From positions 3,162,001-3,226,000 of the forward strand of contig AP026073.1 of NCBI GenBank assembly GCA_024349765.1: a stretch of 64,000 nucleotides of DNA, written 5' to 3'. Below are positions 1 to 20,215 of the stretch, in pieces (the first letter of the stretch is position 1; every line of letters begins with the position of its first letter). The position numbers were made by a program, and so were the translations under genes. The stretch is from Streptomyces nigrescens (GTDB taxonomy: Bacteria; Actinomycetota; Actinomycetes; Streptomycetales; Streptomycetaceae). Under the pieces are notes generated by a model. The model saw only the letters and a program-made list of their open reading frames with translations. It had not been told where the DNA came from and did not search any database.

Positions 1-1383
1 GTTGGTGTCTCCGGCCAGCGGCTCCTCGGTTCCGACCACCCGGTGGAACTGCGTCTTGACCTGCTTGCTGGCGTAGTAGAGCTGGTCGACGGTGTCGCGG
101 TCGAGGGCGGTGCGGACCGTGATGCCGTCCGTACCGGCCTTGCCGTAGGTGTAGGTCCGGGGGAAGAGGCGCTTCTCGATGTCCTGGCGGCAGACCTTGT
201 ACGGCGCGCAGGCGTCGAATTCGATCAGCCAGGTGGCCACCTTGGCCCAAGGGGCGCTGTATGCCCCGAAGTTGCGGGCGGTGGTGTCCAGGAGCGGGCC
301 GAGGCCGGTGACGATCTCGTTGCGCAGCCGGTCGATCTGCCCGGTACGGCCGTACTCGCCGACCGCGTCGCGCACCACCCAGGCGTTGGCCGTGTCCTTG
401 AGGTGGGTGTAGCCGGCGAAGGCCTTGAAGGCGGCGCGGTAGGACGGGTCGGCCACGACCGCGGCGTGGAAGGCGGTGTCCTTGTTGCCCGGGTAGACGC
501 CGAGGTAGTGCACGGAGAGCGCGGCGAGCGCGGCGCCGCCCCAGGAGGAGTCCTTGGCGGTGTCCGGGTGGTCCGGGCCCATGGTGGCAAGTACCCGTTT
601 GACCAGCGGGAGTTGGTACTGGCGCAGGCCCTGCGCGCTGGCCGCGTTGAGGGCTTCGCGGAGCGTCTCGGCGTTGCTGCGGGTCACGTCGAAGGTGTGG
701 GCGGCGGAGCCGAAGGCGTCGACGGCCCGGCGCATGGCGTCCAGCGTCGCCGGGTCGGCGAGGTCGATCTCCCGGTGGGAGAAGCCCTGGTACGCGACCG
801 CGTGCAGGTAGGTGAACATCTCCAGCAGGTGGCTGCCGTTCCGGCCGTCATGCCCGGCGGCGACCTGGCCGATGCGGTGCGCGACGGCCTGGATGTGGTC
901 CTTGGACATGACGGGCGCGAGGCGCTGGTCCCAGGTCCAGATCAGGGTGCGCAGACAGCCGTCGGCGGTGACGTCGGGGGCGGCGAGGAACTCGGTGAAC
1001 TGGTCCGGGGAGAGGTGCGTGATGCCGTCGAGGGTGCAGGGGACGGCGGTCTTGCCGACCGTGGCGTGCGGTGTGCGGGCCGTCGCCTTTGCCTTCGCCT
1101 TGGGCGTGTGCGGGCCGGGGACACGGTCGTTGCCGAGCCCGCCGGGGCCCGGTATCCGGAGGGACGAGGGCTTGGGCGCCTTGGCCAGGCGGTCGACCCG
1201 GTCGTGCGGGGTGGGCGTGGGAGCCGTCGCACCGGCGAAGGTGGCCGGGCCCAGGGCCGCGGCGGCGGTGCGCGGGGCGGGGGAGGGGGTGGCCGGGTAT
1301 CCGGTTCCGGCCGCCGTGACACAGAGCGTCACCGCTGTCGCGGCCGTGAGCAGGGATCTGCGAAGGGTTCTCGAAGGGAACAC
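1..1383 (-). CDS. Secreted M9-family (microbial) collagenase, N-terminal part, cut by window edge
   Basis: The frame runs open from a GTG at 1383 to position 1 (461 codons) and continues outside the window. A GGAGA ribosome site lies at 1389-1393. The N-terminus (SRTLRRSLLTAATAVTLC) is a signal peptide, followed by a Pro/Ala/Thr-rich linker. From about residue 105 the sequence matches the peptidase M9 N-terminal (activator) domain: PCTLDGITHLSPDQFTEFL, a FTYLHAVAYQGF stretch, and VCRQDIEKRLFPRTYTYG near the edge. The HExxH zinc site of this family would lie just beyond the window, so activity cannot be checked here. The gene is transcribed away from a promoter block that also occurs before the peptide transporter, which ties it to the hydroxyproline genes. 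It would act outside the cell on triple-helical collagen. Family assignment is from recognised conserved stretches. Confidence 0.85.
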   Translation of the reverse strand, partial: MFPSRTLRRSLLTAATAVTLCVTAAGTGYPATPSPAPRTAAAALGPATFAGATAPTPTPHDRVDRLAKAPKPSSLRIPGPGGLGNDRVPGPHTPKAKAKATARTPHATVGKTAVPCTLDGITHLSPDQFTEFLAAPDVTADGCLRTLIWTWDQRLAPVMSKDHIQAVAHRIGQVAAGHDGRNGSHLLEMFTYLHAVAYQGFSHREIDLADPATLDAMRRAVDAFGSAAHTFDVTRSNAETLREALNAASAQGLRQYQLPLVKRVLATMGPDHPDTAKDSSWGGAALAALSVHYLGVYPGNKDTAFHAAVVADPSYRAAFKAFAGYTHLKDTANAWVVRDAVGEYGRTGQIDRLRNEIVTGLGPLLDTTARNFGAYSAPWAKVATWLIEFDACAPYKVCRQDIEKRLFPRTYTYGKAGTDGITVRTALDRDTVDQLYYASKQVKTQFHRVVGTEEPLAGDTN

Positions 1384-1494
1384 GAAGGTCTCCTGTGTGG
1401 GGGCGGTGAAACGTGCGCGCCGGGGCTGCGGTGTCCGGGCCCCGGCTGCCTTACAGGCGCCGACCATGAGAGGCATGCGCACGTCATGTGATGT

Positions 1495-1526
1495 GTAACG
1501 TAGTAATGTGAAATTGCACTGACAAG
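1495..1526 (-). promoter_or_regulatory. Promoter with embedded operator for the collagenase gene
   Basis: Reading the minus strand, a TTGTCA -35 (1525-1520), a 17-bp spacer and a TACGTT -10 (1502-1497) form a good vegetative-type promoter. The spacer contains the imperfect inverted repeat GTGAAATTGCAC (plus-strand 1508-1519). The 32-bp block differs at one base from 9772-9803, upstream of the peptide-binding protein. An ATGTGA further left (about 1486-1491) may be part of a second, weaker site. Function as a repressor site is inferred from position and repetition. Confidence 0.7.
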
Positions 1527-1575
1527 CCCTTTGTCGGAGTGTGTTCCGGGGAAATCCCTTTCTCCGCCGGTTAGT

Positions 1576-2541
1576 TCAGACCAGGGGCCGCGCCGCGCCG
1601 GGATGGCGTCGCCGCCAGCGCGCGTACGCCGGGCTGTCGGCGCAGGCGTTCAGATAGCCCTCGCGCACCCGCCGCAGGATCGCCCCGCCGTGCCGGGCGA
1701 GCGGGCCGTCGCGGTGCCAGGCCAGCACATGGCGGTACCACAGGGGGTTGCCGGCCAGTGGGCGCACGACCACCCCCGGTACTTCGATGAAGGTGGCCTG
1801 GCAGAGGCTCACCGCCAGCCCGGCCCGGACGATCTCGATCAGTTGCCGCCCCTCGGCCTCGTAGGGCACCCGGGGATGACGGTCGGTCAGGGCGAAGACG
1901 GACGCCCAGTACTCGCGGGTGCGGTCGCTGTCCGGGCGGGGCGCGGCCCAGTCCTCCGCGGCGAGCCCGGAAAGGCTCACCTCCTCCTGGTCCGCCAGGG
2001 GGTGGCCGGCGGGCAGCAGCGCGAAGACGGGCTCCGTGACGAGCGGGTGCAGCAGCACGCCGTCGCGGGGCGGCGGCTCCTGACCGGGGTGGTCGCCGAG
2101 GACGGCGGCCTCCAGACGGCCGGCGCCAAGGTCGTCCAGCAGCGGGGCGGGCGCGTACCGGCAGCGGGCGGTCACCTCCGCACTCGGCAGCAACTCCCGT
2201 ACGGCCAGCAGGAGATGGCCGAGCAGCGGGGCGCCCACCGAGCCGACGCGGATGCGGGCGGGCGCCGCGGCGCGCCGCGCGGCCCGGTCGGTGTCGGCGA
2301 GGAGCTGGTCGACGCCCGGCAGGATGGCACGGGCGTGGGCCAGCACCAGATCGCCCAGCGGGGTGGGCGCGGAGCCCTCCCGCCGGCGGTCGAACAGCGC
2401 GCCGCCCAGGAGGGTTTCGATGCGCCGCAGCTGGGCGCTCAGGCCCGGCTGGGTCATGCCGAGCGACGCGGCGGCCCGGGTGAGGCTGCCGGCCCCGGCG
2501 ATCGCACACACCACCCGTAGATGCCGTATCTCCAGATCCAT
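1576..2541 (-). CDS. LysR-family transcriptional regulator
   Basis: This 321-residue protein has the usual length and order of a LysR regulator: an N-terminal winged helix-turn-helix (MDLEIRHLRVVCAIAGAGSLTRAAASLGMTQ style, residues 1-60) followed by a periplasmic-binding-like effector domain from about residue 90. The ATG at 2541 fits the family start. It lies between the collagenase gene (same strand, downstream, with its own promoter) and the divergent M6-like protease gene. LysR proteins often control the divergent neighbour, so it may regulate the protease or the collagenase; no LysR-type T-N11-A site was pinned down. The effector is unknown. Confidence 0.9.
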   Translation of the reverse strand: MDLEIRHLRVVCAIAGAGSLTRAAASLGMTQPGLSAQLRRIETLLGGALFDRRREGSAPTPLGDLVLAHARAILPGVDQLLADTDRAARRAAAPARIRVGSVGAPLLGHLLLAVRELLPSAEVTARCRYAPAPLLDDLGAGRLEAAVLGDHPGQEPPPRDGVLLHPLVTEPVFALLPAGHPLADQEEVSLSGLAAEDWAAPRPDSDRTREYWASVFALTDRHPRVPYEAEGRQLIEIVRAGLAVSLCQATFIEVPGVVVRPLAGNPLWYRHVLAWHRDGPLARHGGAILRRVREGYLNACADSPAYARWRRRHPGAARPLV

Positions 2542-2602
2542 GGCGCGGATGTTATGGACCGGTGGGAGCTTCCCGACAGGGTGTGGCAGCCCTCAGTCTC
2601 AT

Positions 2603-2614
2603 GTGACATCTCAC
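2603..2614. promoter_or_regulatory. Candidate operator upstream of the M6-like protease
   Basis: GTGACATCTCAC sits 31 bp before the protease ATG. Its outer arms, GTGA and TCAC, are perfectly inverted. It fits the pattern GTGA(A/C)ATNNNAC seen before the collagenase, transporter, hydroxyproline dehydrogenase and GntR genes. Regulatory role is inferred. Confidence 0.5.
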
Positions 2615-2645: not shown

Positions 2646-3854
2646 ATGAAGGCGCTGCACCCCGCCCGCCGCCGACCCGCACCGCTGCTCGCGGCAGCAC
2701 TCGCCGGGCTCCTCCTCCCCCTCACCGGAGCCCCGCACGCCGAGGCGTCCCATGTGCCCGAGCGGACCGAGCGCGCCGGAGACTGCGCGCTGCCGGGCAC
2801 CACCGGCTGGACGGACGAAGGCCATGCCATCGACCGCTCCGTGTTCCAGCGCCCCACCGGGACCCGCAAGGTCGGCATGATCTTCGTGGACTTCCCGGAC
2901 GCCCCCGCCACCGAGTCCCCGGCCGACGACGCGGCCCAGATCACGCCCGGCGCGGACTGGCTGTGGCAGGCGTCGTACGGCAAGGCGTGGCTCGCCATAT
3001 CCCAGCACCAGCACTGGGTACGGATGCCCCGCAACTCCACCGACTACGGCTTCGCGCGCGGCCTCAGCCACGAGGCGCACGAGGCGTACATCAAGGACGC
3101 CGTCACCGCCGCCGACCCGGACGTGGACTTCTCCGCGTACGACATGGTGTACATCGTCCCGACCAAGAACGCCTCGGCCATCTCCTTCACCCCCACCTAC
3201 GTGTACGAGCCGGGCACGGCCGGCGTCGTCGCCGACGGGAAGCGCATCAAGTGGGCCGTCACCTTCGGCCAGGACATGTGGCACTGGGGGCCCAAACTGG
3301 TCGGCCACGAGACCGTGCACACCTTCGGGCTGCCCGACCTGTACGCCTTCGACCCGGGCGACGACGTGCACCGCTTCGTGGGCGGCTGGGACGTCATGGG
3401 TCTGATCAGCGGGGCCGGGCCGCAGTACTTCGCCTGGGAGTCGTGGAAGCTCGGCTGGACCGCCGACAGTCAGGTCGTCTGCCGGGCCTCGGCGGGCAGC
3501 GACACCGTCCGGCTCACCGCCGTCGAGTACGGCAGCGGAACGAAGATGGCCGTCCTCCGCACCGGCCCGACGTCGGCGTACGTGGTCGAGTCCCGGCGGG
3601 CGGCCCGCGCGGACACCGGCCTGTGCGCGACCGGTGCGCTCGTCTACAAGGTCGACTCGTCCGTCGAGACCGGCAAGGGACCCGTCCGGGTCATGGACGC
3701 CAGGCCCGACGCCACCCCGGCGCAGGGCTGCCGACCCTTGGACGACGCACCCTACCGGGCCGGTGAGTCGTTCACCGACGCGGCCGCGGGCGTGCGGATC
3801 GACGTGCTGAAGGCCGGCGCCTACGGGGACACCGTGCGCATCATCAAGTCATAA
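2646..3854 (+). CDS. Secreted M6-like (immune inhibitor A type) metalloprotease
   Basis: The 402-residue product starts at the ATG at 2646, which has a GAAAGG ribosome site at 2631-2636. The first 34 residues are a signal peptide (Arg-rich start, LLAAALAGLLLPLTGAPHAEA). The zinc signature HETVHTFGLPD starts at residue 221 and matches the HExxHxxGxxD pattern of M6 and related metzincin-like peptidases. A Met-containing turn (GGWDVMGL) follows about 25 residues later, as expected. It lacks the long C-terminal extension of Bacillus InhA and so is a short version. A shared operator-like palindrome lies upstream. The position beside the collagenase and a peptide importer suggests a digestive exoenzyme. 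Substrate is inferred only. Confidence 0.85.
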   Translation: MKALHPARRRPAPLLAAALAGLLLPLTGAPHAEASHVPERTERAGDCALPGTTGWTDEGHAIDRSVFQRPTGTRKVGMIFVDFPDAPATESPADDAAQITPGADWLWQASYGKAWLAISQHQHWVRMPRNSTDYGFARGLSHEAHEAYIKDAVTAADPDVDFSAYDMVYIVPTKNASAISFTPTYVYEPGTAGVVADGKRIKWAVTFGQDMWHWGPKLVGHETVHTFGLPDLYAFDPGDDVHRFVGGWDVMGLISGAGPQYFAWESWKLGWTADSQVVCRASAGSDTVRLTAVEYGSGTKMAVLRTGPTSAYVVESRRAARADTGLCATGALVYKVDSSVETGKGPVRVMDARPDATPAQGCRPLDDAPYRAGESFTDAAAGVRIDVLKAGAYGDTVRIIKS

Positions 3855-3931: not shown

Positions 3932-4960
3932 TCAGACCGTCTCGGGGAAGTGGCAGGCGACCCGGTGGCCGGCCCCCGACCGCTCGGCCCCGCTCAGGAC
4001 CGGGGCCTCGGTGCGGCAGCGGTCCTGTGCCTTGGGGCAGCGCGGGTGGAAGGTGCAGCCGGGCGGGGGCGCCGCGGGGTTCGGAGGGTCGCCGAGCAGG
4101 GTGAGGCGCTCCCGGGCCCGTTCGGCGACGGGGTCGGGCAGCGGTACGGCGGACAGCAGCGCCCGGGTGTAGGGGTGTGCGGGAGCCGCGTAGACCCGTT
4201 CCTTCGGGCCGATCTCGACGATGCGGCCCAGGTACATCACGGCGACCCGGTTGCAGACCCGTTTGACCACGGACAGGTCGTGCGCGATGAAGAGGTAGGC
4301 GAGCCCGAGTTCCCGCTGGAGGCGCGCCATGAGGTTGACGATCTGTGCCTGTACGGAGACGTCGAGCGCCGAGACCGGTTCGTCGGCGATGACCAGCCGC
4401 GGGCCGGTGGCCAACGCCCGGGCGATGCCGATGCGTTGGGCCTGGCCGCCGGAGAACTCGTGCGGATAGCGGTCGAGGTGCTCGGGGATGAGCCCGACCA
4501 GCTCCATCAGGTCGGCGGCCCTGCGGCGGGCGTCGACCGCCGAACCGCCCTGCGCCAGCAGGGGTTCGGCGATGATCCTGGCCACGGTCTGGCGCGGGTT
4601 GAGGGAGGCGTGCGGGTCCTGGAAGACCATCTGCAGGTGGCGGCGCAGCGGGTGCAGTTCCCGCTGGCCGAGGTGGCTGATGTCGCGGCCGTCGAAGGTG
4701 ATCGAGCCGCTCGTCGGCTCCAGCAGCCGCACGATCATGCGGCCGGTGGTGGACTTGCCGCAGCCCGACTCCCCGACCAGGCCGAGGGTTTCGCCCGCCG
4801 CCACGTCGAAGCTGACGCCGTCGACGGCCCGGACGGGGGCCGTGCGGCCCCGCTTGCCGGGGAAGGTCCGGGTCACGTCGCGTACGGACAGCAGCGGGGC
4901 CGTGCCCCGGGACGGGGAGTCGGCGGCGGCCGGGGGCGGGGACGTGCGGGGCGTCGTCAT
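3932..4960 (-). CDS. Oligopeptide/dipeptide ABC transporter ATPase (DppF/OppF type)
   Basis: The 342-residue ATPase shows Walker A (GESGCGKST), the family-typical MVFQDPHASLNPR stretch, the signature FSGGQAQR, Walker B (LVIADEP) and the His loop (AHDLSVV). The C-terminal oligo_HPY region has cysteines in HPRCPKAQDRC, typical of peptide importers. The ATG at 4960 overlaps the previous stop by four bases (ATGA), so the more upstream in-frame codons were not used. It is the last gene of the five-gene importer operon and pairs with the other ATPase. In context it would energise uptake of Pro/Hyp-rich peptides, which is inference. Confidence 0.93.
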   Translation of the reverse strand: MTTPRTSPPPAAADSPSRGTAPLLSVRDVTRTFPGKRGRTAPVRAVDGVSFDVAAGETLGLVGESGCGKSTTGRMIVRLLEPTSGSITFDGRDISHLGQRELHPLRRHLQMVFQDPHASLNPRQTVARIIAEPLLAQGGSAVDARRRAADLMELVGLIPEHLDRYPHEFSGGQAQRIGIARALATGPRLVIADEPVSALDVSVQAQIVNLMARLQRELGLAYLFIAHDLSVVKRVCNRVAVMYLGRIVEIGPKERVYAAPAHPYTRALLSAVPLPDPVAERARERLTLLGDPPNPAAPPPGCTFHPRCPKAQDRCRTEAPVLSGAERSGAGHRVACHFPETV

Positions 4961-6021
4961 GGGGTGACCTTTCGGATCCGGTCCGGGCCCTCGGACCGCG
5001 GGTGTCCCGGGGCGCCGGGTGCGGTGGCCGGGCCGAGCGGCAGATGGCAGGCCACCGTGTGCCCGCCGGAGGCGACCAGCCGGGGCCGGTGACGGGTGCA
5101 CCGCTCCCGATCGGCCCAGTCGGCCGCCGCCGCCCGGGGGCAGCGGGGCGCGAACGCGCAGCCCGGTGTGGGGGTGAGCAGCGAGGGCGGGCTGCCGGGG
5201 ATCGCGCGCAACGGGGCGTCGTCGGCGTCGTCGAGCCGGGGCAGGGAATCGAGCAGGCCGCGCGTGTAGGGGTGGGCGGGGGCGGCGAACAGGGCCTCCA
5301 CCGGCGCCTGTTCGGCCGCCCGGCCGCCGTACATGACCAGGACCTCGTGGGCGACGCGGGCGACCACCCCGAGGTCGTGGGTGATCAGGACGACGGCGAG
5401 CGAGCGTTCCTCCTGGAGCCGGGCGAGCAGCTCCAGGATCTGGGCCTGGACGGTGACGTCCAGGGCGGTCGTGGGCTCGTCCGCGATGAGCAGGTCGGGC
5501 TCGCAGACCAGGGCCATGGCGATCATCACCCGCTGCCGCATGCCGCCGGAGAACTGGTGCGGGTACTCGCCCGCCCGGCGCTCCGGCTCCGGGATCCCGA
5601 CCTCGGCGAGCATCTCCACGGCCCGCCGCCGGGCGGCGGCGCGGCCCGAGCCGACGTGCACCCGGTGGTGCTCGGCTATCTGCTCGCCGACCGTGTAGTA
5701 GGGGTGGAGGCTGGAGAGCGGGTCCTGGAAGACCATCGCCATCCGGCGGCCGCGGAGCCGGCTCAGCTCGCGCTCGGTGAGCCCGGCGAGTTCCCGGCCC
5801 TCCAGGGCGATCGAACCGCTGACCTCGGCCGCGGTGTGCAGACCCATCACGGCCATCGAGGTGACCGACTTGCCGGAGCCGGACTCGCCGACGATGCCGA
5901 GGGTACGGCCGCGGTGGACGTCGAAGGACAGGGAGTCGACGGCCCGTACGGGGCCGTCCTTGGTGGCGAACGTCACCGCCAGGTCCCGTACGGCCAGCAG
6001 GGGTTCGGTGTCGGTGGCCAT
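4957..6021 (-). CDS. Oligopeptide/dipeptide ABC transporter ATPase (DppD/OppD type)
   Basis: A 354-residue ATPase with Walker A (GESGSGKS), the Q-loop region FQDPLSSLHP, signature FSGGMRQR, Walker B (LLIADEP) and the H-loop (THDLGVVA). The C-terminus has the oligo_HPY cysteine pattern (PGCAFAPRCPR, then C..C). The ATG at 6021 shares one base with the TGA of the upstream permease; a GTG one codon earlier is also possible. It works as a pair with the ATPase at 3932-4960 on the cytoplasmic face of the importer. Confidence 0.93.
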   Translation of the reverse strand: MATDTEPLLAVRDLAVTFATKDGPVRAVDSLSFDVHRGRTLGIVGESGSGKSVTSMAVMGLHTAAEVSGSIALEGRELAGLTERELSRLRGRRMAMVFQDPLSSLHPYYTVGEQIAEHHRVHVGSGRAAARRRAVEMLAEVGIPEPERRAGEYPHQFSGGMRQRVMIAMALVCEPDLLIADEPTTALDVTVQAQILELLARLQEERSLAVVLITHDLGVVARVAHEVLVMYGGRAAEQAPVEALFAAPAHPYTRGLLDSLPRLDDADDAPLRAIPGSPPSLLTPTPGCAFAPRCPRAAAADWADRERCTRHRPRLVASGGHTVACHLPLGPATAPGAPGHPRSEGPDRIRKVTP

Positions 6022-9771: not shown

Positions 9772-9803
9772 GTAACATAGTAATGTGAAATTGCACTGAC
9801 AAG
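9772..9803 (-). promoter_or_regulatory. Promoter with embedded operator for the peptide importer operon
   Basis: On the minus strand, TTGTCA (9802-9797), a 17-bp spacer and TATGTT (9779-9774) give a near-consensus promoter. The inverted repeat GTGAAATTGCAC occupies plus-strand 9785-9796, inside the spacer. The block matches 1495-1526 at 31 of 32 positions. It also lies in the divergent region before the M24 peptidase and could act on both directions. Confidence 0.72.
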
Positions 9804-11375: not shown

Positions 11376-11411
11376 TTGGCAACGTGGGTGCAATGTGAAA
11401 TATTACTGACG
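11376..11411 (+). promoter_or_regulatory. Promoter/operator of the hydroxyproline catabolic operon, apparently leaderless
   Basis: TTGGCA (11376-11381), a 17-bp spacer and AATATT (11399-11404) place the expected start of transcription at or next to the GTG at 11411. No Shine-Dalgarno sequence precedes that GTG. The operator-like GTGAAATATTAC (11395-11406) overlaps the -10, and the surrounding bases match the 1495 and 9772 blocks. Confidence 0.6.
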
Positions 11412-12628: not shown

Positions 12629-12952
12629 ATGGCGCGTGACCGCAGCCCCGCCGAGCTCGTCGGCGCGGCGCCCGACGCCGCGTTCGAGATCACCTTCGAC
12701 GGCCGCCCGATCACCGCGCTGCCCGGCCAGTCCCTGGCCGCCGCGCTGTGGGCCGCCGGCATCCTCGCCTGGCGCACCACCCGCGTCGGCGGCCGGCCGC
12801 GCGGCGCCTTCTGCGGCATCGGGCACTGCTTCGACTGCCTCGCCACCGTCAACGGAGAACCCAACCGCCGGGCCTGCCTGGTCCCGGCGCGGCCCGGCGA
12901 CGCCGTCACGACCCAGGAGGGACACGGCCATGACGATCTCGCCGTCCGATGA
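12629..12952 (+). CDS. 2Fe-2S ferredoxin-like (gamma) subunit of D-hydroxyproline dehydrogenase
   Basis: A 107-residue protein starting at the ATG at 12629 with GAAAGGAG upstream. It contains the HcnA/Fer2_4-type motif CGIGHCFDC with a fourth Cys in NRRACLVP, enough for one 2Fe-2S cluster. Its end overlaps the start of the next subunit by 23 bp, which implies translational coupling. It would pass electrons between the two flavin subunits. Subunits like this occur in opine, glycine and hydroxyproline dehydrogenases; the pathway context supports the last. Confidence 0.85.
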   Translation: MARDRSPAELVGAAPDAAFEITFDGRPITALPGQSLAAALWAAGILAWRTTRVGGRPRGAFCGIGHCFDCLATVNGEPNRRACLVPARPGDAVTTQEGHGHDDLAVR

Positions 12953-14552
12953 CCCGGAGTACGACCTCGCGGTGATCGGGGCCGGCGCCGCGGGCCTCGC
13001 CGGTGCCGTCACCGCCGCCGAACTCGGCCTGTCCGTCGCCCTGTTGGACACCTCGTCACAGCTGGGCGGGCAGTTCTACCGGCACCCCGCCCCGGCCCTC
13101 GGCGCCACCCGCCCCGAGGCGCTGCACCACGACTGGTCCACCTTCACCGACCTGCGCCGTCGCCTGACCGACAGCGGCGTGACCCATCTCGCCGGACACC
13201 ATGTCTGGACCGTCGTCCGCGCGGAGCCCAAGGACCTGTGGGACGTGCACGCCGTGACCGGAGCGGACGGCAATGGGGAGCGCCCGGCCCGGGTCCGGGC
13301 CCGCGCGGTGCTGCTCGCGACCGGCGCGTACGAGCGGCAACTGCCGTTCCCCGGCTGGACGTTGCCGGGCGTGGTGGGTGCCGGGGGAGCGCAGGCGATG
13401 CTCAAGTCCGGCTTGGTGGTGCCTGGGATTGGGGTCTCCTCTGTGCGGGCGCAGCCGAGAGCTGGGATTGGGGTCTCCTCTGTGCGGGCGCAGCCGAGAG
13501 CTGGGATTGGGGTCTCCCCTGCTCGAGCGCAGCCGAGAGCTGGGGGAAGGGTCGTGGTGGCGGGCAGTGGTCCGCTGCTGCTGGCCGTCGCCGCCTCGCT
13601 CGTCACGGCGGGGGCCCGCGTCCCGGCGGTGGTCGAGGCGGCCGGCTACCTCGGCTACGCCCGCCACCTCCGCGTTCTCGCCGCCAACCCGCACAAGATG
13701 GCGGAGGCGGCGGTGCACGGCACGGCGCTCCTGCGGCACGGGGTGCGGCTGCGCACCCGCAGCGCGGTGACCCAGGTGCACGGGGCCGACCGGGTGGAGG
13801 CCGTCACGGTCTCCCGGCTCGACCGCGACTGGCGGCCCGTACGGGGGTCGGGCCGCCGGATCGCCTGCGACGCCCTGGCGGTCGGCTTCGGTCTCGTCCC
13901 GCAGCTCGAACTCGCCACCGGCCTGGGCTGCGCCACCCGGCGCACCCGGGACGGCAGCCACGCCCTCGACCTCGACGCACAGCAGCAGACCTCGGTACCC
14001 GGCATCTGGGCGGCGGGCGAGACAGGCGGCATCGGTGGCGTGCAACTCGCATGCGTGGAAGGCGAGTTGGCGGGTCTCGCGATCGCGGCCCGGCTCGGCG
14101 GGCGGCCCGCGCTCACCGAAAGCGGGCGGGCCCGTGCCCTGGGCCGCCGGCGCGACCGGATGCGCGCCTTCGCGTCCGTGATGGCCGCGGCACACGCACC
14201 CGGCGCCGGATGGACCCGGTGGCTCGACGACACCACGGACGTCTGCCGCTGCGAGGAGGTCAGCGCCGGCCACATCCGCGAGGCGGTCGCCGACTACGGC
14301 GCCCGGGACGCCCGCACCGTCAAACTCCTCACCCGCGCCGGCATGGGCTGGTGCCAGGGCCGGATGTGCGGGACCGCCGTGGCCTGCCTGGCCGCGGAGG
14401 GGCCGGGAGCGGAGCCGTCGCCGTCTCCGGAGCGCCGCCCGCTGGCCGTGCCCGTCCGGCTGGAGGTGCTCGGTGCCCTCGCGGAGGTGACCGCATCCGG
14501 GGCCGGCGATCCGGAGGAAAGCGCCGATCCGGAGAAGGGCGCCGGCCGCTGA
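12930..14552 (+). CDS. NAD(P)/FAD oxidoreductase (alpha) subunit of D-hydroxyproline dehydrogenase, with internal repeat insertion
   Basis: Start ATG at 12930, with AGGAGG at 12915-12920; 540 residues. The N-terminal dinucleotide site reads AVIGAGAAGLAGAVTAAELG, a second one is VVVAGSGPLLLAVAA, and the C-terminus has the BFD-type cysteine cluster DVCRCEEVSAGHI then GWCQGRMCG. This is the HcnB/LhpE-like architecture. Between LKSGLVVPG and GRVVVAGSG there is a 39-residue insertion made of three copies of a 13-residue unit (about residues 165-203), encoded by three 39-bp DNA repeats. The frame stays open and both flanks are conserved, so the protein may still fold with an extended loop before the second dinucleotide domain; activity is uncertain. 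Confidence 0.85.
   Translation: MTISPSDDPEYDLAVIGAGAAGLAGAVTAAELGLSVALLDTSSQLGGQFYRHPAPALGATRPEALHHDWSTFTDLRRRLTDSGVTHLAGHHVWTVVRAEPKDLWDVHAVTGADGNGERPARVRARAVLLATGAYERQLPFPGWTLPGVVGAGGAQAMLKSGLVVPGIGVSSVRAQPRAGIGVSSVRAQPRAGIGVSPARAQPRAGGRVVVAGSGPLLLAVAASLVTAGARVPAVVEAAGYLGYARHLRVLAANPHKMAEAAVHGTALLRHGVRLRTRSAVTQVHGADRVEAVTVSRLDRDWRPVRGSGRRIACDALAVGFGLVPQLELATGLGCATRRTRDGSHALDLDAQQQTSVPGIWAAGETGGIGGVQLACVEGELAGLAIAARLGGRPALTESGRARALGRRRDRMRAFASVMAAAHAPGAGWTRWLDDTTDVCRCEEVSAGHIREAVADYGARDARTVKLLTRAGMGWCQGRMCGTAVACLAAEGPGAEPSPSPERRPLAVPVRLEVLGALAEVTASGAGDPEESADPEKGAGR
13423..13539 (+). repeat. Three tandem 39-bp repeats inside a coding sequence
   Basis: Units start at 13423, 13462 and 13501. 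The first two are identical; the third ends TCTCCCCTGCTCGAGCGCAG-like and resembles the dispersed Streptomyces repeat seen between genes. Each is a multiple of three, so the reading frame is kept. The encoded unit is GIGVSSVRAQPRA, with a variant third copy. Confidence 0.95.
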
Positions 14553-14676: not shown

Positions 14677-15597
14677 ATGACCACCGCCTCCACCGCCACG
14701 ACCTGGAGCGCCGAACGCCCCTGGCGCGGCATCATGGTCGCCACCGCCCTGCCCCTGCGTGCGGACCGGTCCGTCGACCATGACGCCTACGCCGCACACG
14801 TCCGCTGGCTCCTCGACAACGGCTGCGACGGCGTGGTGCCGAACGGCTCGCTGGGCGAGTACCAGACCCTGACCGACGAGGAACGTGCCCGCGTGGTGCG
14901 CACCGCCGTCGCGGCCGCCGGCGACGGTGCGCGCGTGATGCCCGGCGTGTCCGCGTACGGCAGCGCCGAGGCCCGCCGGTGGGCCGAGCAGGCCGCCGAA
15001 GAGGGCTGCGGCAGCGTCCTGCTGCTGCCGCCCAACGCCTACCGCGCCGACGAGTCGGCCGTACGGGCCCACTACGCCGAGGTCGCCCGGGCCGGCGTGC
15101 CGATCGTGGGCTACAACAACCCCATCGACACCAAGGTCGACCTGACCCCCGCGCTGCTCGCCCGCCTCCACGGCGAGGGCAGCATCGTCGCGGTCAAGGA
15201 GTTCACCGGCGATGTGCGCCGGGCGTACGAACTGGCCGAACTCGCCCCCGGACTGGACCTGTTGATCGGCGCCGACGACGTGCTCCTGGAGCTCGCGCTG
15301 GCCGGGGCTGTGGGCTGGATCGCCGGATACCCCAACGCCTTCCCCGCCGCCTGCGCCGAGCTCTACCGTGCCGCCGTGGCCCAGGACCTGGACACCGCCC
15401 TGCCGCTGTACCGGTCCCTGCACGCCCTGCTGCGCTGGGACTCCAAGACCGAGTTCGTGCAGGCCATCAAGCTCTCCATGGACATCGTCGGCCGCCACGG
15501 CGGCCCGACCCGGCCGCCTCGTCTGCCACTGTCCGGCACTGTCGAGGCCGAGGTGCGGGCAGCCACCGAGAAGACCGTCGCCGCCGGCCACCGCTGA
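14677..15597 (+). CDS. DHDPS-family aldolase/deaminase, likely pyrroline-4-hydroxy-2-carboxylate deaminase
   Basis: The 306-residue protein has the dihydrodipicolinate-synthase/N-acetylneuraminate-lyase TIM barrel. VVPNGSLGEYQTLTDEER holds the substrate loop, YNNP has its Tyr at residue 146, and VAVKEFTG carries the Schiff-base Lys at residue 174. True DapA genes sit elsewhere and use GGTTGE-type loops; here the loop is NGSLGEY. Placement between D-hydroxyproline dehydrogenase and the epimerase/aldehyde dehydrogenase matches LhpC/HypD-type deaminases, which turn pyrroline-4-hydroxy-2-carboxylate into 2-oxoglutarate semialdehyde and ammonia. Function is inferred from family plus context. Confidence 0.85.
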   Translation: MTTASTATTWSAERPWRGIMVATALPLRADRSVDHDAYAAHVRWLLDNGCDGVVPNGSLGEYQTLTDEERARVVRTAVAAAGDGARVMPGVSAYGSAEARRWAEQAAEEGCGSVLLLPPNAYRADESAVRAHYAEVARAGVPIVGYNNPIDTKVDLTPALLARLHGEGSIVAVKEFTGDVRRAYELAELAPGLDLLIGADDVLLELALAGAVGWIAGYPNAFPAACAELYRAAVAQDLDTALPLYRSLHALLRWDSKTEFVQAIKLSMDIVGRHGGPTRPPRLPLSGTVEAEVRAATEKTVAAGHR

Positions 15598-15610: not shown

Positions 15611-16615
15611 ATGCGCACCCGCCACGTCTTCCACGCCGTCGACTCACACACCGAAGGCATGCCCACCCGCGTGATCACCGGCGGCGTCGGGGTGATCCCC
15701 GGCACCACCATGGCCGAGCGCCGGCTGCACTTCATCGAGCACCTGGACCACCTGCGCACCCTGCTCATGTACGAGCCGCGGGGCCACGCCTCCATGAGCG
15801 GCGCCATCCTCCAGCCCCCGACCCGGCCCGACGCCGACTACGGCGTGCTGTTCATCGAGGTCTCCGGCCTCCTGCCGATGTGCGGACACGGCACCATCGG
15901 GGTGGCCACCGTCCTCGTCGAGACCGGCATGGTCGAGGTCACCGAGCCCGTGACCACCGTCCGCCTCGACACCCCCGCCGGCCTGATCAGCGTCGACGTC
16001 CAGGTCGAGGACGGACGGGCCGAGTCCGTCACGCTCACCAACGTGCCCGCCTTCTGCGTCGGCCTCGACCTCACGGCGGACGTACCGGGCTACGGCGCGG
16101 TGACGTACGACCTCGCCTTCGGCGGCAACTTCTACGCCTTCGTCGATCTCGACGCCCTGGGGCTGCCGTTCGACCGCGCCCGCAAGGACGATCTGCTCGC
16201 CGCGGGGCTCGCCCTCATGGACGCGATCAACGCCTCGCCCGACCGGCCCGTCCACCCGACCCGGCCGGAGATCGCGGGCGTCAAACACGTCTACCTCGCC
16301 GCCCCGGGCGCGGACGCCCACCACTCCCGGCACGCCATGGCCATCCACCCGGGCTGGTTCGACCGCTCGCCGTGCGGCACCGGCACCAGTGCGCGGATGG
16401 CCCAGCTGCACGCCCGCGGCGCCCTGCCCCTGCACCGCGACTTCGTCAACGAGTCCTTCATCGGCACCCGGTTCACCGGGCGGCTCGTCGAAGAGACCGA
16501 GATCGGGCACCTGCCCGCCGTCGTGCCCCGCATCACCGGGCGGGCCTGGATCACCGGCACCGCCCAGTACTTCCTGGACCCCGACGACCCCTTCCCCGGA
16601 GGTTTCCTCCTGTGA
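15611..16615 (+). CDS. 4-hydroxyproline 2-epimerase (proline racemase family)
   Basis: The ATG at 15611 follows GGAGGAG; 334 residues. The proline-racemase family signatures are clear: VDSHTEGMPTRV near the start, the first catalytic cysteine in LPMCGHGTIG (Cys91) and the second in RSPCGTGTSAR (Cys255). Having both cysteines points to a racemase/epimerase, because trans-3-hydroxyproline dehydratases of the family replace the second with Thr. It would convert trans-4-hydroxy-L-proline to the cis-D isomer, the first step after peptide cleavage. Coupled by a four-base overlap to the next gene. Confidence 0.92.
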   Translation: MRTRHVFHAVDSHTEGMPTRVITGGVGVIPGTTMAERRLHFIEHLDHLRTLLMYEPRGHASMSGAILQPPTRPDADYGVLFIEVSGLLPMCGHGTIGVATVLVETGMVEVTEPVTTVRLDTPAGLISVDVQVEDGRAESVTLTNVPAFCVGLDLTADVPGYGAVTYDLAFGGNFYAFVDLDALGLPFDRARKDDLLAAGLALMDAINASPDRPVHPTRPEIAGVKHVYLAAPGADAHHSRHAMAIHPGWFDRSPCGTGTSARMAQLHARGALPLHRDFVNESFIGTRFTGRLVEETEIGHLPAVVPRITGRAWITGTAQYFLDPDDPFPGGFLL

Positions 16616-17994
16616 GCACCGCCCTGGCCCCGGTTGTCTCCCGCAACCCGGCCGACCCCTCCGACGTGGTCGTGGAGACCGCCGCACCCGGCGCGTTCGC
16701 CGCCGCCGACGCCGTCGAACGCGCCCGCACCGCACAGCCCGGCTGGCTGCTCGACGGCGCGGCCGCCCGCTCGGCCGCCCTCGGCGCGATCGCCGACGCC
16801 GTCGAGGCGGCCGCGGACGAACTGGCCGCGCTCGCCGTACGCGAGGTGGGCAAACCGGTCACCGAAGCCCGCGCCGAGGTGGCCCGCACCGCCGCGATCT
16901 GGCGCTACTACGCCCAGACCCCGCACGACCCCACCGGCGCGGTCCACGAGCCGGCCGCCGGCCCCGGACTGCTGCTCAGCCGCCGCCGGCCGCACGGCGT
17001 CGCCGGCCTGATCACCCCCTGGAACTTCCCGTTCGCCATCCCCACCTGGAAGGCGGCCCCCGCGCTCGCCGCCGGCAACGTGGTCGTACTGAAACCCGCA
17101 CCCGAAGCCACCGGCTGCGCGCTGCGCCTGGCCGAGATCGTGCAACAGGCGCTGCCCGCCGGGGTGTTCACGGTGCTGCCCGGCGGTGCCACCGAGGGTG
17201 ACGCCGTCGTCTCGTCCGCCGACGTCATCTCCTTCACCGGCTCCACCGCGGTCGGCCGGGCCGTCGCGCGGACCGCCACCGACCGAGGTGTCCCCGTACA
17301 GGCCGAGATGGGCGGGCTGAACGCGGCGATCGTCCTGCCGGACGCCGACATGGACACCGCGGCCGCACACATCGCCGCCGCCGTCGCCGGATACGCCGGC
17401 CAGAAGTGCACCGCCACCAGCCGCGTGATCGCCGTGGGGGCGGCCCTCGCGCCGCTGCGCGAGGCACTGGCCGCACACCTGCGGGCCCTGCCGGTGGGCG
17501 CCCCCACCGACCCCGCCACCGTCTGCGGCCCCCTCATCAACGAACGGGCCCGCAACCGGGTGGTCGAGGCCCGCCGGGGACTGCCCGCACTCGTGGGCAC
17601 CCCCGCGCCCGTCCCGAGCGACGGCTGGTACGCGGCGCCGGCCCTGTTGGAGCACGTCCCCGCCGACCACCCGCTCCTGCGGGAGGAGACCTTCGGCCCG
17701 ATCGCCGTACTGCTCCCCGCCGACGACCTGGACCGGGCGGTGCGGATGACCAACTCCGTTCCGTACGGCCTGGTCACCTCGGTACACACGGCATCCCTCG
17801 ACACCGCCCTGCACGGACTCGACCGGCTCGACACCGGCATGATCCGGGTCAACGCCCCTTCCACCGGTGTCGACTTCCACCTGCCGTTCGGGGGCACCAA
17901 GGCATCCAGCCACGGACCGCGCGAACAGGGCCGCGCCGCCCTGGACTTCTACACCTCGACCCGCACCTACACCCTCGCCCCCGCACACCCGTAG
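16612..17994 (+). CDS. Aldehyde dehydrogenase, likely 2-oxoglutarate semialdehyde (2,5-dioxovalerate) dehydrogenase
   Basis: The GTG at 16612 overlaps the epimerase stop (GTGA), so earlier in-frame codons were rejected; 460 residues. ALDH landmarks: GLITPWNFPFAIPTWK, SFTGSTAVGR, catalytic Glu232 in AEMGG and nucleophile Cys266 in GQKCTATSR (the 34-residue spacing is normal), then EETFGPIAVL and LPFGGTKASSHG. It lacks a few N-terminal residues compared with the usual 480-490. As the last step it would oxidise the semialdehyde to 2-oxoglutarate for the TCA cycle. NADP versus NAD use cannot be told. Confidence 0.9.
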   Translation: MSTALAPVVSRNPADPSDVVVETAAPGAFAAADAVERARTAQPGWLLDGAAARSAALGAIADAVEAAADELAALAVREVGKPVTEARAEVARTAAIWRYYAQTPHDPTGAVHEPAAGPGLLLSRRRPHGVAGLITPWNFPFAIPTWKAAPALAAGNVVVLKPAPEATGCALRLAEIVQQALPAGVFTVLPGGATEGDAVVSSADVISFTGSTAVGRAVARTATDRGVPVQAEMGGLNAAIVLPDADMDTAAAHIAAAVAGYAGQKCTATSRVIAVGAALAPLREALAAHLRALPVGAPTDPATVCGPLINERARNRVVEARRGLPALVGTPAPVPSDGWYAAPALLEHVPADHPLLREETFGPIAVLLPADDLDRAVRMTNSVPYGLVTSVHTASLDTALHGLDRLDTGMIRVNAPSTGVDFHLPFGGTKASSHGPREQGRAALDFYTSTRTYTLAPAHP

Positions 17995-18011
17995 CCACCT
18001 GCGAAAACAAC

Positions 18012-18023
18012 GTGACATTGTAC
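18012..18023. promoter_or_regulatory. Candidate operator upstream of the GntR gene
   Basis: GTGACATTGTAC lies 54 bp before the GntR start and matches GTGAAATTGCAC at 10 of 12 positions. Suggests autoregulation and the same binding protein. Confidence 0.55.
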
Positions 18024-18077
18024 GCTGGTGATCCGCTCGGCCACGAGGGACAAGGGCACGAAGGGAAACACCACGAC

Positions 18078-18794
18078 ATGGGCCACCTCACGCAGCGCAA
18101 TCTCAACACCACCAGGGAGCGCCTGCGCGACCAGGTCGCCCACCACCTGCGGGCGGCCCTGATCTCGGGCGAACTCCGCCCCGGCGAGGTCTACTCGGCA
18201 CCCGGTCTCGCGGAGGACTTCGGCATCTCCGCGACGCCGGTGCGCGAGGCGATGCTCGACCTGGCCCGCGAAGGCCTGGTCGAACCCGTCCGCAACAAGG
18301 GCTTCCGGGTCACCGAGGTCAACGAGCGCGACCTCGACCAGTACACCGAGATCCGCACCCTCATCGAGGTCCCCATGATCGGCCGCATCACGCGCAGCGC
18401 GTCCCGCGAGGAGCTGGAGGCGCTGCGCCCGGTCGCCGAGGAGATCGTGCGCGCCGCCCGCGACCACGACCTCATCGGCTACCTCGACGCCGACCGCCAG
18501 TTCCACCTCTCCCTCCTCGCGCTCGCCGGGAACGACCGGCTCGTGGAGACGGTCGGTGACCTGCGCAAGCGCTCCCGCCTGTACGGCCTGACCGCCCTGG
18601 ACGAACGCGACCAGCTGCTCCCCTCGGCCGAGGAGCACATCGAACTCCTCGACCTGATGGTGGCCGGCAACGCCAAGGCCGCCGAGAAGTGCATGGCCCG
18701 CCACCTGAGCCACGTCCGCTCCCTGTGGGCGGAGAGCGCGCAGGAACGCACCCCCGCCCGGCACGGCCGCAATGTCCGCCTGAGTTCCCACTGA
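18078..18794 (+). CDS. GntR-family regulator, FCD (FadR) subfamily; probable regulator of the collagen/hydroxyproline genes
   Basis: A 238-residue protein: N-terminal winged helix (LRDQVAHHLRAALISGELRPGEVYSAP..., residues 10-75, with FGISATPVREAM as the recognition region) and an FCD all-helical effector domain (DADRQFHLSLLALAGN; the His pattern continues in EEHIELLDLM and MARHLSHV). FCD proteins commonly bind organic acids via a metal held by Asp/His. It lies 83 bp behind the aldehyde dehydrogenase on the same strand and has a shared operator in front. That makes it the best candidate to bind GTGA(A/C)ATNNNAC; the ligand might be hydroxyproline or a pathway intermediate (inference). Confidence 0.92.
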   Translation: MGHLTQRNLNTTRERLRDQVAHHLRAALISGELRPGEVYSAPGLAEDFGISATPVREAMLDLAREGLVEPVRNKGFRVTEVNERDLDQYTEIRTLIEVPMIGRITRSASREELEALRPVAEEIVRAARDHDLIGYLDADRQFHLSLLALAGNDRLVETVGDLRKRSRLYGLTALDERDQLLPSAEEHIELLDLMVAGNAKAAEKCMARHLSHVRSLWAESAQERTPARHGRNVRLSSH

Positions 18795-18889
18795 CGACCG
18801 GACCCCGCCCGGGGCGGACCGGCCGGTGCCGGGCCGTGCACAACACGGCGTGATGGCCGAGCGGGAGTTCCCCCGGACGTGCGGTGACC

Positions 18890-18902
18890 ACAGACTGTCT
18901 GT
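18890..18902. promoter_or_regulatory. Perfect 13-bp palindrome before the prolyl aminopeptidase
   Basis: ACAGACTGTCTGT has 6-bp arms around one central base, 47 bp upstream of the next start codon. It does not match the GTGA-type operator. It may be a separate regulator site. Confidence 0.4.
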
Positions 18903-18949
18903 CCCAGGCCGGTCCGACCACACCTCACCCACGCGCCCGGGAAGGGACC

Positions 18950-20215
18950 ATGAACCCCGCACACACCACCGTCGACCACACCTTCACGGTCCCCTTGGAC
19001 CACGCCGCCCCCGGCGGCGAGACGATACGCATCTTCGCCCGCGAGATCACCGACCGCTCCCGCGCCGGCGAGGAACTGCCCTGGCTGCTCTATCTGCAGG
19101 GCGGCCCGGGCGGCAAGTCCCCCCGCCCGTCGGGCACCTCGCCCGGCTGGCTGGCCCACGCACTGACCACGCACCGCGTCCTCCTCCTCGACCAGAGGGG
19201 CACCGGCCGCTCCACCCCGGTCACCGCCCGGTCCGCCGCGCGTTGTGAGGACCCGGCCCAACTCGCCGCATATCTGGGCCACTTCAGGGCCGACTCGATC
19301 GTCGCCGATGCCGAGCTGATCCGCCACACGCTGTGCGGTGGGGAGCGCTGGGAGACGCTCGGCCAGAGCTACGGCGGCTTCCTCACCCTCACCTACCTCT
19401 CCCAGGCCCCGGAAGGACTCCGGGCCTGCTACGTCGCCGGCGGCCTCCCGGGCCTCACGGCCACCGCCGACGACGTCTACGCCCGCACCTATCCACGCGT
19501 GCGCGACCGGGTCCACGAGTTCTACGCCCGCTATCCGGACGACGCCCGATGTCTGCGCCGGCTGGCCGATCTGCTCACCGCGCAGGACGTACGCCTGCCC
19601 GACGGGGACCGGCTCACCGTCCGCCGGCTGCGCACCCTCGGCCTGCTGCTCGGCATGGGCGACGGGTTCGAGCGCCTGCACTGGCTGCTCGACGAAGCGC
19701 TGGACGAGGACGGCGGACCGACCGACACCTTCCTGTACCAGGTGATGGGCCTGACCGGCTTCACCGACAACCCGCTCTTCGCCGTCCTCCAGGAAACCCT
19801 GTACGGCCAGGGCGCCGGCCCCACCGGCTGGGCGGCCTCCCGTGCCCTCGCCGCCTTCCCCGAATTCACCGAGGCCGCGGACCCCCTGCTGCTCACCGGC
19901 GAGATGATCTACCGCTGGATGTTCGAGGACATCCGCGGTCTGCGCCCCTTCGCACAGGCCGCCGACCTGCTCGCCGGGCGCACCGACTGGCCGCCCCTGT
20001 ACGACCCGGACCGCCTCGCCGCCAACCGCGTCCCGCTCGCCGCGGTCGTCTACCACGACGACATGTACGTGGACGCGGGTCTGTCCCTGGACACCGCCCG
20101 CAAGATCGGCGCCGCACGTGCCTGGGTCACCAACGAATGGGAACACGACGGCCTCGCCGCCTCCGGCGACCGGGTCCTCGCCCGCCTGATGGACCTGGCC
20201 GCCGGCCGCGGCTGA
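18950..20215 (+). CDS. Prolyl aminopeptidase (proline iminopeptidase), alpha/beta hydrolase S33
   Basis: The ATG at 18950 has AAGGGA eight bases upstream; 421 residues. The sequence carries S33-family marks: LYLQGGPGGKSPRP (oxyanion HGGP-like motif), DQRGTGRS, and the nucleophile elbow GQSYGGF with Ser140. The C-terminal His lies in NEWEHDGLAASG. The long C-terminal cap is typical of the tetrameric, larger prolyl aminopeptidases of Streptomyces. These enzymes remove N-terminal Pro and often Hyp from peptides, so it complements the M24 peptidase. It is 155 bp behind the GntR gene. Confidence 0.9.
   Translation: MNPAHTTVDHTFTVPLDHAAPGGETIRIFAREITDRSRAGEELPWLLYLQGGPGGKSPRPSGTSPGWLAHALTTHRVLLLDQRGTGRSTPVTARSAARCEDPAQLAAYLGHFRADSIVADAELIRHTLCGGERWETLGQSYGGFLTLTYLSQAPEGLRACYVAGGLPGLTATADDVYARTYPRVRDRVHEFYARYPDDARCLRRLADLLTAQDVRLPDGDRLTVRRLRTLGLLLGMGDGFERLHWLLDEALDEDGGPTDTFLYQVMGLTGFTDNPLFAVLQETLYGQGAGPTGWAASRALAAFPEFTEAADPLLLTGEMIYRWMFEDIRGLRPFAQAADLLAGRTDWPPLYDPDRLAANRVPLAAVVYHDDMYVDAGLSLDTARKIGAARAWVTNEWEHDGLAASGDRVLARLMDLAAGRG

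What the first reader, a model, noticed from the sequence alone, without database searches (positions are those of the whole stretch)
1..20215. Complete collagen-to-2-oxoglutarate island: digestion, import, peptide cleavage, hydroxyproline catabolism
Seen: an M9 collagenase, an M6-like protease, a five-gene peptide ABC importer, M24 and S33 proline peptidases, and an operon with D-hydroxyproline dehydrogenase subunits, a DHDPS-family deaminase, a two-Cys epimerase and an aldehyde dehydrogenase, plus a GntR regulator. Known: the four enzyme steps take trans-4-hydroxy-L-proline to 2-oxoglutarate. Inference: these act as one collagen/hydroxyproline utilisation system. Linking extracellular collagenases with intracellular hydroxyproline breakdown in one 20-kb block would be a distinctive nutritional module.
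Basis: partly seen in the sequence, partly recalled or inferred. Interest (0 to 1): 0.9.

Follow-up and report, generated by a model that had tools for sequence, protein, structure and literature searches.

The report
Streptomyces collagen and hydroxyproline utilisation island
A soil bacterium keeps the genes for cutting collagen, importing the pieces and burning hydroxyproline side by side, and a shared DNA switch in front of them suggests that one repressor, already known from a related species, controls them together.

Summary
All named genes are present; a LysR regulator was missed, and the collagenase runs about 1 kb past the window's left edge. The hydroxyproline operon (three-subunit dehydrogenase, deaminase, Cys-Cys epimerase, aldehyde dehydrogenase, GntR) matches the HypR-controlled operon of S. 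coelicolor (PMC6608401), where HypR also represses an unlinked collagenase.

The new evidence is regulatory. A 31-bp element (a promoter with a HypR-like operator in its spacer) precedes the collagenase and the peptide importer/M24 peptidase. In 121 Streptomyces genomes its 30-mer core (up to 3 mismatches) occurs 56 times: 55 lie within 25 kb of an M9 collagenase or the epimerase, one at a contig end; the reversed control gives 0. The exact HypR footprint sequence precedes the GntR gene.

M9 and epimerase are linked in several gene orders (30 of 93 M9 copies, about 0.5 expected). Many unlinked M9 genes of both subtypes also carry HypR-like sites.

It is a new variant of a known kind: the HypR regulon is published, and an M9-plus-hydroxyproline cluster is published for Colwellia. 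HypR binding to this box, substrates and induction are untested.

The parts
1..1482 (-). M9 collagenase, clostridial type, secreted; gene continues left of the window to about -992; true start codon not settled (somewhere in 1332-1482)
1495..1525 (-). 31-bp operator-promoter box of the collagenase (TTGTCA-17-TACGTT, core TGCAATTTCAC)
1576..2541 (-). LysR-family regulator; loosely conserved member (4 of 60 relatives' loci)
2603..2614 (.). weak HypR-like site between LysR and M6 (2 mismatches)
2646..3854 (+). M6-family metalloprotease, secreted by its leader (my reading)
3932..4960 (-). peptide importer ATPase (OppF-like)
4957..6021 (-). peptide importer ATPase (OppD-like)
6021..7007 (-). peptide importer permease (OppB-like)
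7004..7957 (-). peptide importer permease (OppC-like)
7975..9720 (-). peptide-binding protein SBP_bac_5, nearest solved sequence OppA2 (2wok)
9772..9802 (-). 31-bp operator-promoter box of the importer (TTGTCA-17-TATGTT), in the region shared with divergent M24
9938..11308 (+). M24 aminopeptidase P-like peptidase
11376..11404 (+). hyp operon promoter TTGGCA-17-AATATT, overlapping HypR-like site 11389-11399 (2 mismatches)
11411..12568 (+). D-hydroxyproline dehydrogenase beta (DAO)
12629..12952 (+). D-hydroxyproline dehydrogenase gamma (Fer2_4)
12930..14552 (+). D-hydroxyproline dehydrogenase alpha (Pyr_redox_2, Fer2_BFD), with tandem-repeat insert
14677..15597 (+). [quoted passage not shown]
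15614..16615 (+). 4-hydroxyproline epimerase (Cys-Cys type)
16612..17994 (+). alpha-ketoglutaric semialdehyde dehydrogenase by context; overlaps the epimerase stop (GTGA)
18012..18022 (-). exact HypR footprint 11-mer TACAATGTCAC before hypR
18078..18794 (+). HypR-type GntR/FCD repressor
18950..20215 (+). S33-like hydrolase, probable prolyl aminopeptidase

Best explanation
This is a product-induced collagen-foraging island. A clostridial-type M9 collagenase and probably an M6 protease are secreted and cut collagen. A five-gene peptide importer takes up the peptides. An M24 aminopeptidase P and a probable S33 prolyl aminopeptidase free proline and hydroxyproline. Hydroxyproline goes epimerase -> D-Hyp dehydrogenase (alpha, beta, gamma) -> deaminase -> semialdehyde dehydrogenase -> 2-oxoglutarate. 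The GntR protein is the HypR repressor. It sits in the spacer between -35 and -10 of the collagenase and importer promoters and on the hyp and hypR promoters, and it leaves when a hydroxyproline-derived signal appears. Shown here: gene content, operator and promoter sequences, their conservation and near-exclusivity. Inferred: HypR binding to the box, control of M24 from the shared intergenic region (no promoter on its own strand was identified), substrates, induction, and the inclusion of M6, LysR and S33.
For: Gene families. Nearest solved sequences. S. coelicolor precedent. Exact hypR footprint sequence at 18012-18022. The collagenase and importer promoters share a 20-mer found only these two times in the 9.3-Mb genome at up to 3 mismatches, reversed control 0. 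In 121 genomes the 30-mer box has 56 places: 32 within 3 kb of an M9 domain of this subtype, 22 more within 25 kb of the epimerase, 1 about 8 kb from an M9 of the other subtype, 1 at a contig end; reversed control 0. Some orthologous boxes carry the exact EMSA-bound 11-mer TGCAATGTCAC at the same position (L034, L147, L148, L174, L227). With a PWM made only from the 7 published sites: colM9 19 of 22, SBP 12 of 12, M24 20 of 21, hyp operon 30 of 51, hypR 44 of 57 loci, against 0 of 60 for epimerase and 0 of 40 for oppB, C, D and F upstream windows. Linkage 30 of 93 M9 copies, about 0.5 expected, kinship not corrected.
Against: No binding or expression data for this strain. The box has T where all 7 published HypR sites have G (TGCAATTTCAC), and the site before the hyp operon here has 2 mismatches. 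The 14-bit threshold was set. The bare 11-mer is not specific: 37 places in the genome at up to 1 mismatch, 9 for the reversed control. No box lies within 3 kb of any of the 55 M9 copies of the other subtype. M6, LysR and S33 are poorly conserved parts. NCBIfam scores for epimerase and aldehyde dehydrogenase stay below their cut-offs. The dehydrogenase alpha subunit carries a 39-residue repeat insert that may affect it. 16 of 38 M9 copies of this subtype are not within 25 kb of the epimerase, 10 of them because they lie on another contig.
Confidence: 0.8

Rival explanations
1. The hyp operon and HypR are real, but the collagenase, importer and peptidases are general protein-scavenging neighbours with no common control.
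For: 47 of 55 M9 copies of the other subtype and 16 of 38 of this one are not within 25 kb of the epimerase; M6, LysR and S33 are found in few loci.
Against: Unlinked M9 genes too carry HypR-PWM sites (25 of 43 and 11 of 14 usable copies) against a background of 0.0046 per 205-bp window, about 0.007 when scaled to the 310-bp windows; the box is almost exclusive to these genes; linkage recurs in different orders.
Confidence: 0.08
2. The 31-bp box is bound by another regulator, such as the LysR protein at 1576-2541, and HypR controls only the hyp operon and itself.
For: The box is longer and more constrained than the published HypR motif and has one systematic base difference; a LysR gene lies beside the collagenase here.
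Against: LysR is found in 4 of 60 relatives' loci and 2 of 80 named loci, though flanks are limited, while the box is visible before the collagenase in 22 of 22 and 75 of 75; several boxes hold the exact HypR-bound 11-mer; in S. coelicolor HypR binds and represses a collagenase promoter.
Confidence: 0.12
3. The substrate is plant hydroxyproline-rich glycoprotein, or proline peptides in general, rather than animal collagen.
For: The importer and proline peptidases are not collagen-specific; PMC6608401 itself names plant and algal cell walls as sources of Hyp.
Against: M9 enzymes are collagen/gelatin specialists (general knowledge), and M9 presence tracks the epimerase: 72 of 73 M9 genomes have it against 29 of 48 without M9 (Fisher p 2.4e-8, not corrected for kinship).
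Confidence: 0.15

Closest known systems
HypR regulon of Streptomyces coelicolor A3(2) (SCO6289-6294, collagenase SCO5912, SCO5281; PMC6608401: outline, Results parts 1-2 and Discussion seen)
   Same: Same operon order beta-gamma-alpha-deaminase-epimerase with the GntR/FCD regulator next to it; identical footprint 11-mer before hypR; a collagenase under HypR control
   Different: There the collagenase is far away and the KGSADH gene is not near the operon; no peptide importer or proline peptidase is among the HypR targets in the sections seen. Here collagenase, importer, M24 and KGSADH are in the same block, and the collagenase is the clostridial type
Collagen utilisation gene cluster of Colwellia MAG BB5, C. 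piezophila and C. psychrerythraea (PMC7883544: passages seen)
   Same: About 21 kb with an M9 collagenase, transporter, proline peptidases, D-Hyp dehydrogenase, epimerase and KGSA dehydrogenase
   Different: Gammaproteobacterial; MFS transporter and TonB receptor instead of a peptide ABC importer; PutR instead of HypR; PPIases present; no shared operator described in the passages seen
4HypE cluster of Streptomyces lividans TK24 (PMC4113996: passages seen)
   Same: Predicted 4-Hyp epimerase pathway in Streptomyces, growth on trans-4-hydroxy-L-proline
   Different: The word collagen does not occur in its main text
lhp/hyp operons of Pseudomonas aeruginosa and Sinorhizobium meliloti (as described in PMC6608401)
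   Same: Same enzyme steps; three-subunit D-HypDH as in P. aeruginosa; GntR repressor as in S. meliloti
   Different: No collagenase mentioned in these operons there; AraC-type activator in P. aeruginosa; unrelated HypO dehydrogenase in S. meliloti

Membership tests
HypR regulon (S. coelicolor type) | GntR/FadR-subfamily regulator with FCD domain and the DNA-contact residues named in the paper | tested here: met
   Pfam GntR and FCD; Ser, Thr, Arg, Arg, Asn at 51, 53, 56, 72, 73 (counted by eye on the translation) against 50, 52, 55, 71, 72 in the paper
HypR regulon (S. coelicolor type) | Footprinted operator TACAATGTCAC before hypR | tested here: met
   Exact match at 18012-18022; also exact in many relatives
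HypR regulon (S. coelicolor type) | Consensus CTNTGC(A/C)ATGTCAC before the hyp operon and a collagenase | tested here: inconclusive
   One mismatch in the 11-mer core before the collagenase (TGCAATTTCAC), two before the hyp operon (TGCAATGTGAA); the exact core is present in some orthologous boxes
HypR regulon (S. coelicolor type) | Binding by HypR, derepression in a hypR deletion, induction by L-Hyp | not testable with these tools
   Needs EMSA and reporters
M9 collagenase, clostridial type | HExxH plus a downstream Glu ligand, sequence nearest to ColG/ColH/ColT | tested here: met
   HEYTH motif; its His, Glu and the Glu 28 residues later are invariant in 10 sequences, window plus 9 relatives; aligned with ColT
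M9 collagenase, clostridial type | Cleavage of triple-helical collagen | not testable with these tools
   Pfam reported no PKD or collagen-binding domain on the 633-aa C-terminal form, so true collagenase versus gelatinase is open
4-hydroxyproline 2-epimerase | Cys-Cys catalytic pair in MCGH and DRSPCGTG motifs | tested here: met
   MCGHGT and DRSPCGTGT in the translation; motif definition from PMC4364671 (passages)
4-hydroxyproline 2-epimerase | Curated 4-Hyp epimerase model score over its cut-off | tested here: not met
   NF010578 356 bits against 376; proline racemase model 353.8 against 556. The substrate rests on operon context and on SCO6293 genetics
Three-subunit D-Hyp dehydrogenase (P. 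aeruginosa type) | DAO beta, Fer2 gamma, Pyr_redox+Fer2_BFD alpha in one operon | tested here: met
alpha-ketoglutaric semialdehyde dehydrogenase | Score over a curated KGSADH model | tested here: not met
   Best model is KGSADH (356.5 bits) but its cut-off is 770; assignment by context
Colwellia-type collagen utilisation cluster | M9 collagenase, epimerase, D-Hyp dehydrogenase, KGSA dehydrogenase, transporter and proline peptidases in one locus | tested here: met
   All functional classes present, with a different transporter class and regulator
Colwellia-type collagen utilisation cluster | Common descent of the cluster with the Colwellia one | not tested
   Colwellia sequences were not fetched

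The most novel reading that the evidence does not exclude
A portable 31-bp operator-promoter module, with shorter HypR sites elsewhere, puts the whole collagen economy of many Streptomyces (two collagenase subtypes, a peptide importer, an Xaa-Pro peptidase and hydroxyproline catabolism) under one repressor. Secretion of collagenase is then switched on only by a breakdown product of collagen itself, and selection has repeatedly re-linked the collagenase to the hydroxyproline operon in different gene orders.
Probability: 0.55. Interest if true: 0.65.

Novelty: new variant of a known kind. Interest (0 to 1): 0.5.

Why it matters
It extends a 2019 finding in one species (HypR represses a distant collagenase and the hydroxyproline operon) to a sequence-defined regulon in many Streptomyces that also takes in a dedicated peptide importer and an Xaa-Pro peptidase, and it gives the exact operator to test. 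It suggests which importer carries collagen peptides into Streptomyces, which proteases to look at for collagen and gelatin processing, and how bacteria couple secretion of a costly enzyme to detection of its product.

Tried and rejected
LysR as the common regulator: rejected as main candidate; found in 4 of 60 relatives' loci and 2 of 80 named loci.

Genome-wide HypR core search (TGCAATGTCAC, up to 1 mismatch): 37 places, 9 for the reversed control. Three are in the island and one before the C2 collagenase. Of the other 33, 16 lie inside predicted genes and six are one identical repeated sequence that I take for 23S rRNA from recall of its sequence. The bare 11-mer is therefore not specific, and I moved to the longer box. 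No site of the published SCO5281 type (TGCAATGTGAC) is in that list.

MAFFT alignment of five promoters of the window did not bring all sites into register and was not used. Class-wide search: M9 in 30 of 394 genomes (28 over cut-off), 6 of 137 genera; linkage outside the genus was not followed.

Random-window control for the box: 14 of 4,446 random 410-bp windows away from the collagenase start held a box; these are no counter-examples, because all 97 boxes counted in these loci lie within 400 bp of a colM9, M24 or SBP start.

Tree of deaminase+epimerase (quick method, 59 rows, 52 labelled, many open forks): at least 9 changes between linked and unlinked; I do not read gain or loss from it. 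Only 60 of the 100 places taken were fetched with flanks; left out of the 100 were the window's own hit, one partial hit and four distant homologues. Of the unlinked M9 copies, two on short contigs and one partial were left out, the own C2 copy was handled apart, and 2 of the 59 fetched had too little upstream DNA. The eight linked M9 copies of the other subtype were not scored for operators as a set.

No structure prediction was run; the question did not turn on it. Paper searches bearing on novelty.
Full report
WHAT IS THERE. The window lies at C1:3162001-3226000 of a 9.33-Mb, two-contig genome. The genus is Streptomyces: the contig of genome G093, listed as same genus, has 8,270,461 bases, the same length as the named record NZ_CP029617.1 of Streptomyces sp. 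WAC 01529. The collagenase is cut by the window edge; the flanking stretch completes it.

THE PARTS. The collagenase is nearest to ColT, ColG and ColH (183-191 bits) and far from the other solved M9 group 7wss, 7esi and 9l5o (62-66 bits). That the first group is clostridial and the second Vibrio/Grimontia is recalled, not from the table. It has HEYTH and a Glu 28 residues further on. The genome holds a second M9 gene on contig C2 that matches the second group (299 bits to 7wss). Below I call the subtypes clostridial-type (Pfam M9 scores 140-177 bits) and Vibrio-type (330 bits or more); for the other genomes these labels rest on the Pfam score alone. The importer's binding protein is nearest to OppA2 of the clavulanic acid pathway. 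The M24 enzyme is nearest to aminopeptidase P. The S33 enzyme is nearest to AT3g61540 over its full length, with weak matches to proline iminopeptidases, so its activity is a guess. The dehydrogenase is the three-subunit kind: DAO, Fer2_4, Pyr_redox_2 plus Fer2_BFD. The epimerase has both catalytic cysteines, but its NCBIfam scores for 4-Hyp epimerase and proline racemase are almost equal and both under cut-off, so its substrate rests on context. The KGSADH gene overlaps the epimerase stop by GTGA. Signal peptides and lipobox are my reading of the sequences.

WHAT IS ALREADY KNOWN. Kotowska et al. 2019 (PMC6608401; outline, Results parts 1-2 and Discussion seen) showed that S. coelicolor HypR, a GntR/FCD protein, footprints on a stretch holding TACAATGTCAC before its own gene, binds six other fragments, and represses SCO6289-6293, the collagenase SCO5912 and SCO5281. 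L-Hyp induces the operon and hypR in vivo, and deleting the epimerase abolishes growth on L-Hyp. In that species the collagenase and KGSADH are not linked to the operon. The 2014 genome-neighbourhood paper (PMC4113996, passages) reported growth of S. lividans on trans-4-Hyp. A marine-bone metagenome paper (PMC7883544, passages) described a 21-kb Colwellia cluster with M9 collagenase, transport and hydroxyproline genes. The searches listed in Tried and rejected gave no report of such a block in Streptomyces; the library lacks most subscription papers.

REGULATORY EVIDENCE. The exact footprint 11-mer lies before the GntR gene here (18012-18022). The collagenase promoter and the SBP/M24 intergenic region share a near-identical 31-mer; its 20-mer core occurs twice in the whole genome at up to 3 mismatches, at these two places, reversed control 0. 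It reads as TTGTCA-17-TATGTT (TACGTT at the collagenase) with TGCAATTTCAC in the spacer. An independent promoter scan of 20 kb found only two sites (0.3 expected): this one at the importer and TTGGCA-17-AATATT before the hyp operon, both overlapping HypR-like sites; the collagenase box was not called by that scan. With a PWM built only from the seven published S. coelicolor sites, in the window plus 60 relatives' loci, sites of 14 bits or more lie upstream of colM9 in 19 of 22, SBP 12 of 12, M24 20 of 21, hyp operon 30 of 51, hypR 44 of 57, deaminase 25 of 57; M6 2 of 5, LysR 2 of 5, S33 2 of 6; and of inner genes epimerase 0 of 60, KGSADH 0 of 15, alpha 0 of 36, gamma 1 of 50, oppB, C, D and F together 0 of 40. 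Outside the six main target windows there were 24 hits in 1,066,588 positions. The threshold was chosen after a first look. In the window itself the M6/LysR site has two mismatches, and the best site before the deaminase is weak (7.3 bits).

EXCLUSIVITY. In 80 named loci (the best 80 of 211 relatives) the box (up to 7 substitutions in 31) precedes the collagenase in 75 of 75 with more than 150 bp upstream. All 97 box occurrences lie within 400 bp of the start of colM9 (65), M24 (21) or SBP (11), none elsewhere; accordingly 14 of 4,446 random windows away from the collagenase hit one of them. In 121 whole genomes the 30-mer at up to 3 mismatches has 56 places in 37 genomes; 32 are within 3 kb of a clostridial-type M9 domain, 22 more within 25 kb of the epimerase, 1 is 8 kb from a Vibrio-type M9, 1 is at a contig end; the reversed control has none. 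32 of 38 clostridial-type M9 copies have it within 3 kb, 0 of 55 Vibrio-type copies. The unlinked Vibrio-type genes instead show shorter HypR-like sites: 25 of 43 at 14 bits or more, against 11 of 14 unlinked clostridial-type copies. The window's own C2 collagenase has TGCTATGTCAC 95 bp upstream.

LINKAGE. Of 121 genus genomes, 101 have the epimerase and 73 have M9; 72 have both (Fisher p 2.4e-8, not corrected for kinship). Linked within 25 kb: 22 of 38 clostridial-type and 8 of 55 Vibrio-type copies, together 30 of 93 against about 0.5 by chance. The orders differ: collagenase-importer-M24-operon as here, M24 divergent from collagenase followed by the operon, collagenase directly before the operon, and others. 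Of the 80 named loci, 52 show hyp genes in the flanks, 10 only importer or M24, 18 neither, some on short contigs. KGSADH is in 14 of 60 relatives' loci. The left part of the window's order (collagenase, LysR, M6, importer, M24) recurs in S. olivoverticillatus and S. abikoensis (L171, L211). One genome (G090) has two hyp operons, each with a different type of M9 nearby.

MECHANISM. The best reading is simple repression. HypR sits between -35 and -10 and blocks RNA polymerase; basal collagenase and importer activity delivers a little hydroxyproline; a metabolite of it removes HypR; collagenase, importer, Xaa-Pro peptidase and the enzyme steps rise together. L-Hyp and D-Hyp did not change HypR binding in vitro in S. 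coelicolor, so the effector is probably downstream. Binding of HypR to the longer box is inferred from the shared core and from orthologous boxes that hold the exact bound 11-mer.

VERDICT. The regulon and the idea of such clusters exist in print; the Streptomyces island with importer, peptidase and KGSADH, the operator-promoter box and its near-exclusivity are, as far as my searches reach, new.

Noticed in passing
window 13423-13544: The D-Hyp dehydrogenase alpha gene carries 3.1 in-frame copies of a 39-bp repeat (39 extra residues). Of 41 sequences listed (window included), 28 relatives have no insert, 11 gave no motif match, and L034 has a similar 13-residue insert at the same site; a 26-base piece of the repeat occurs nowhere else in the genome at up to 3 mismatches.
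   Followed up: partly
L004:10220-12175 (genome contig C2), minus: Second M9 collagenase, of the Vibrio-type group, with a HypR-like site TGCTATGTCAC 95 bp upstream.
   Followed up: partly
L076:254-2413, minus: S9/DPP IV-type prolyl peptidase gene with TGGAATGTCAC 111 bp upstream, a candidate further member of the regulon.
   Followed up: no
L015 and L018 (genome G090): One genome has two hydroxyproline operons, each linked to an M9 collagenase of a different type.
   Followed up: no
L185 and L223: Records titled Streptosporangium nondiastaticum and Microtetraspora glauca carry the Streptomyces-type collagenase, box and hyp genes; the labels may be wrong.
   Followed up: no
upstream of the deaminase gene in relatives (L007, L008, L011, L015 and others): A second HypR-like site (often TAAAATGTCAC) lies shortly before the deaminase gene inside the operon in 25 of 57 loci; the window has no such site at 14 bits or more.
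   Followed up: partly
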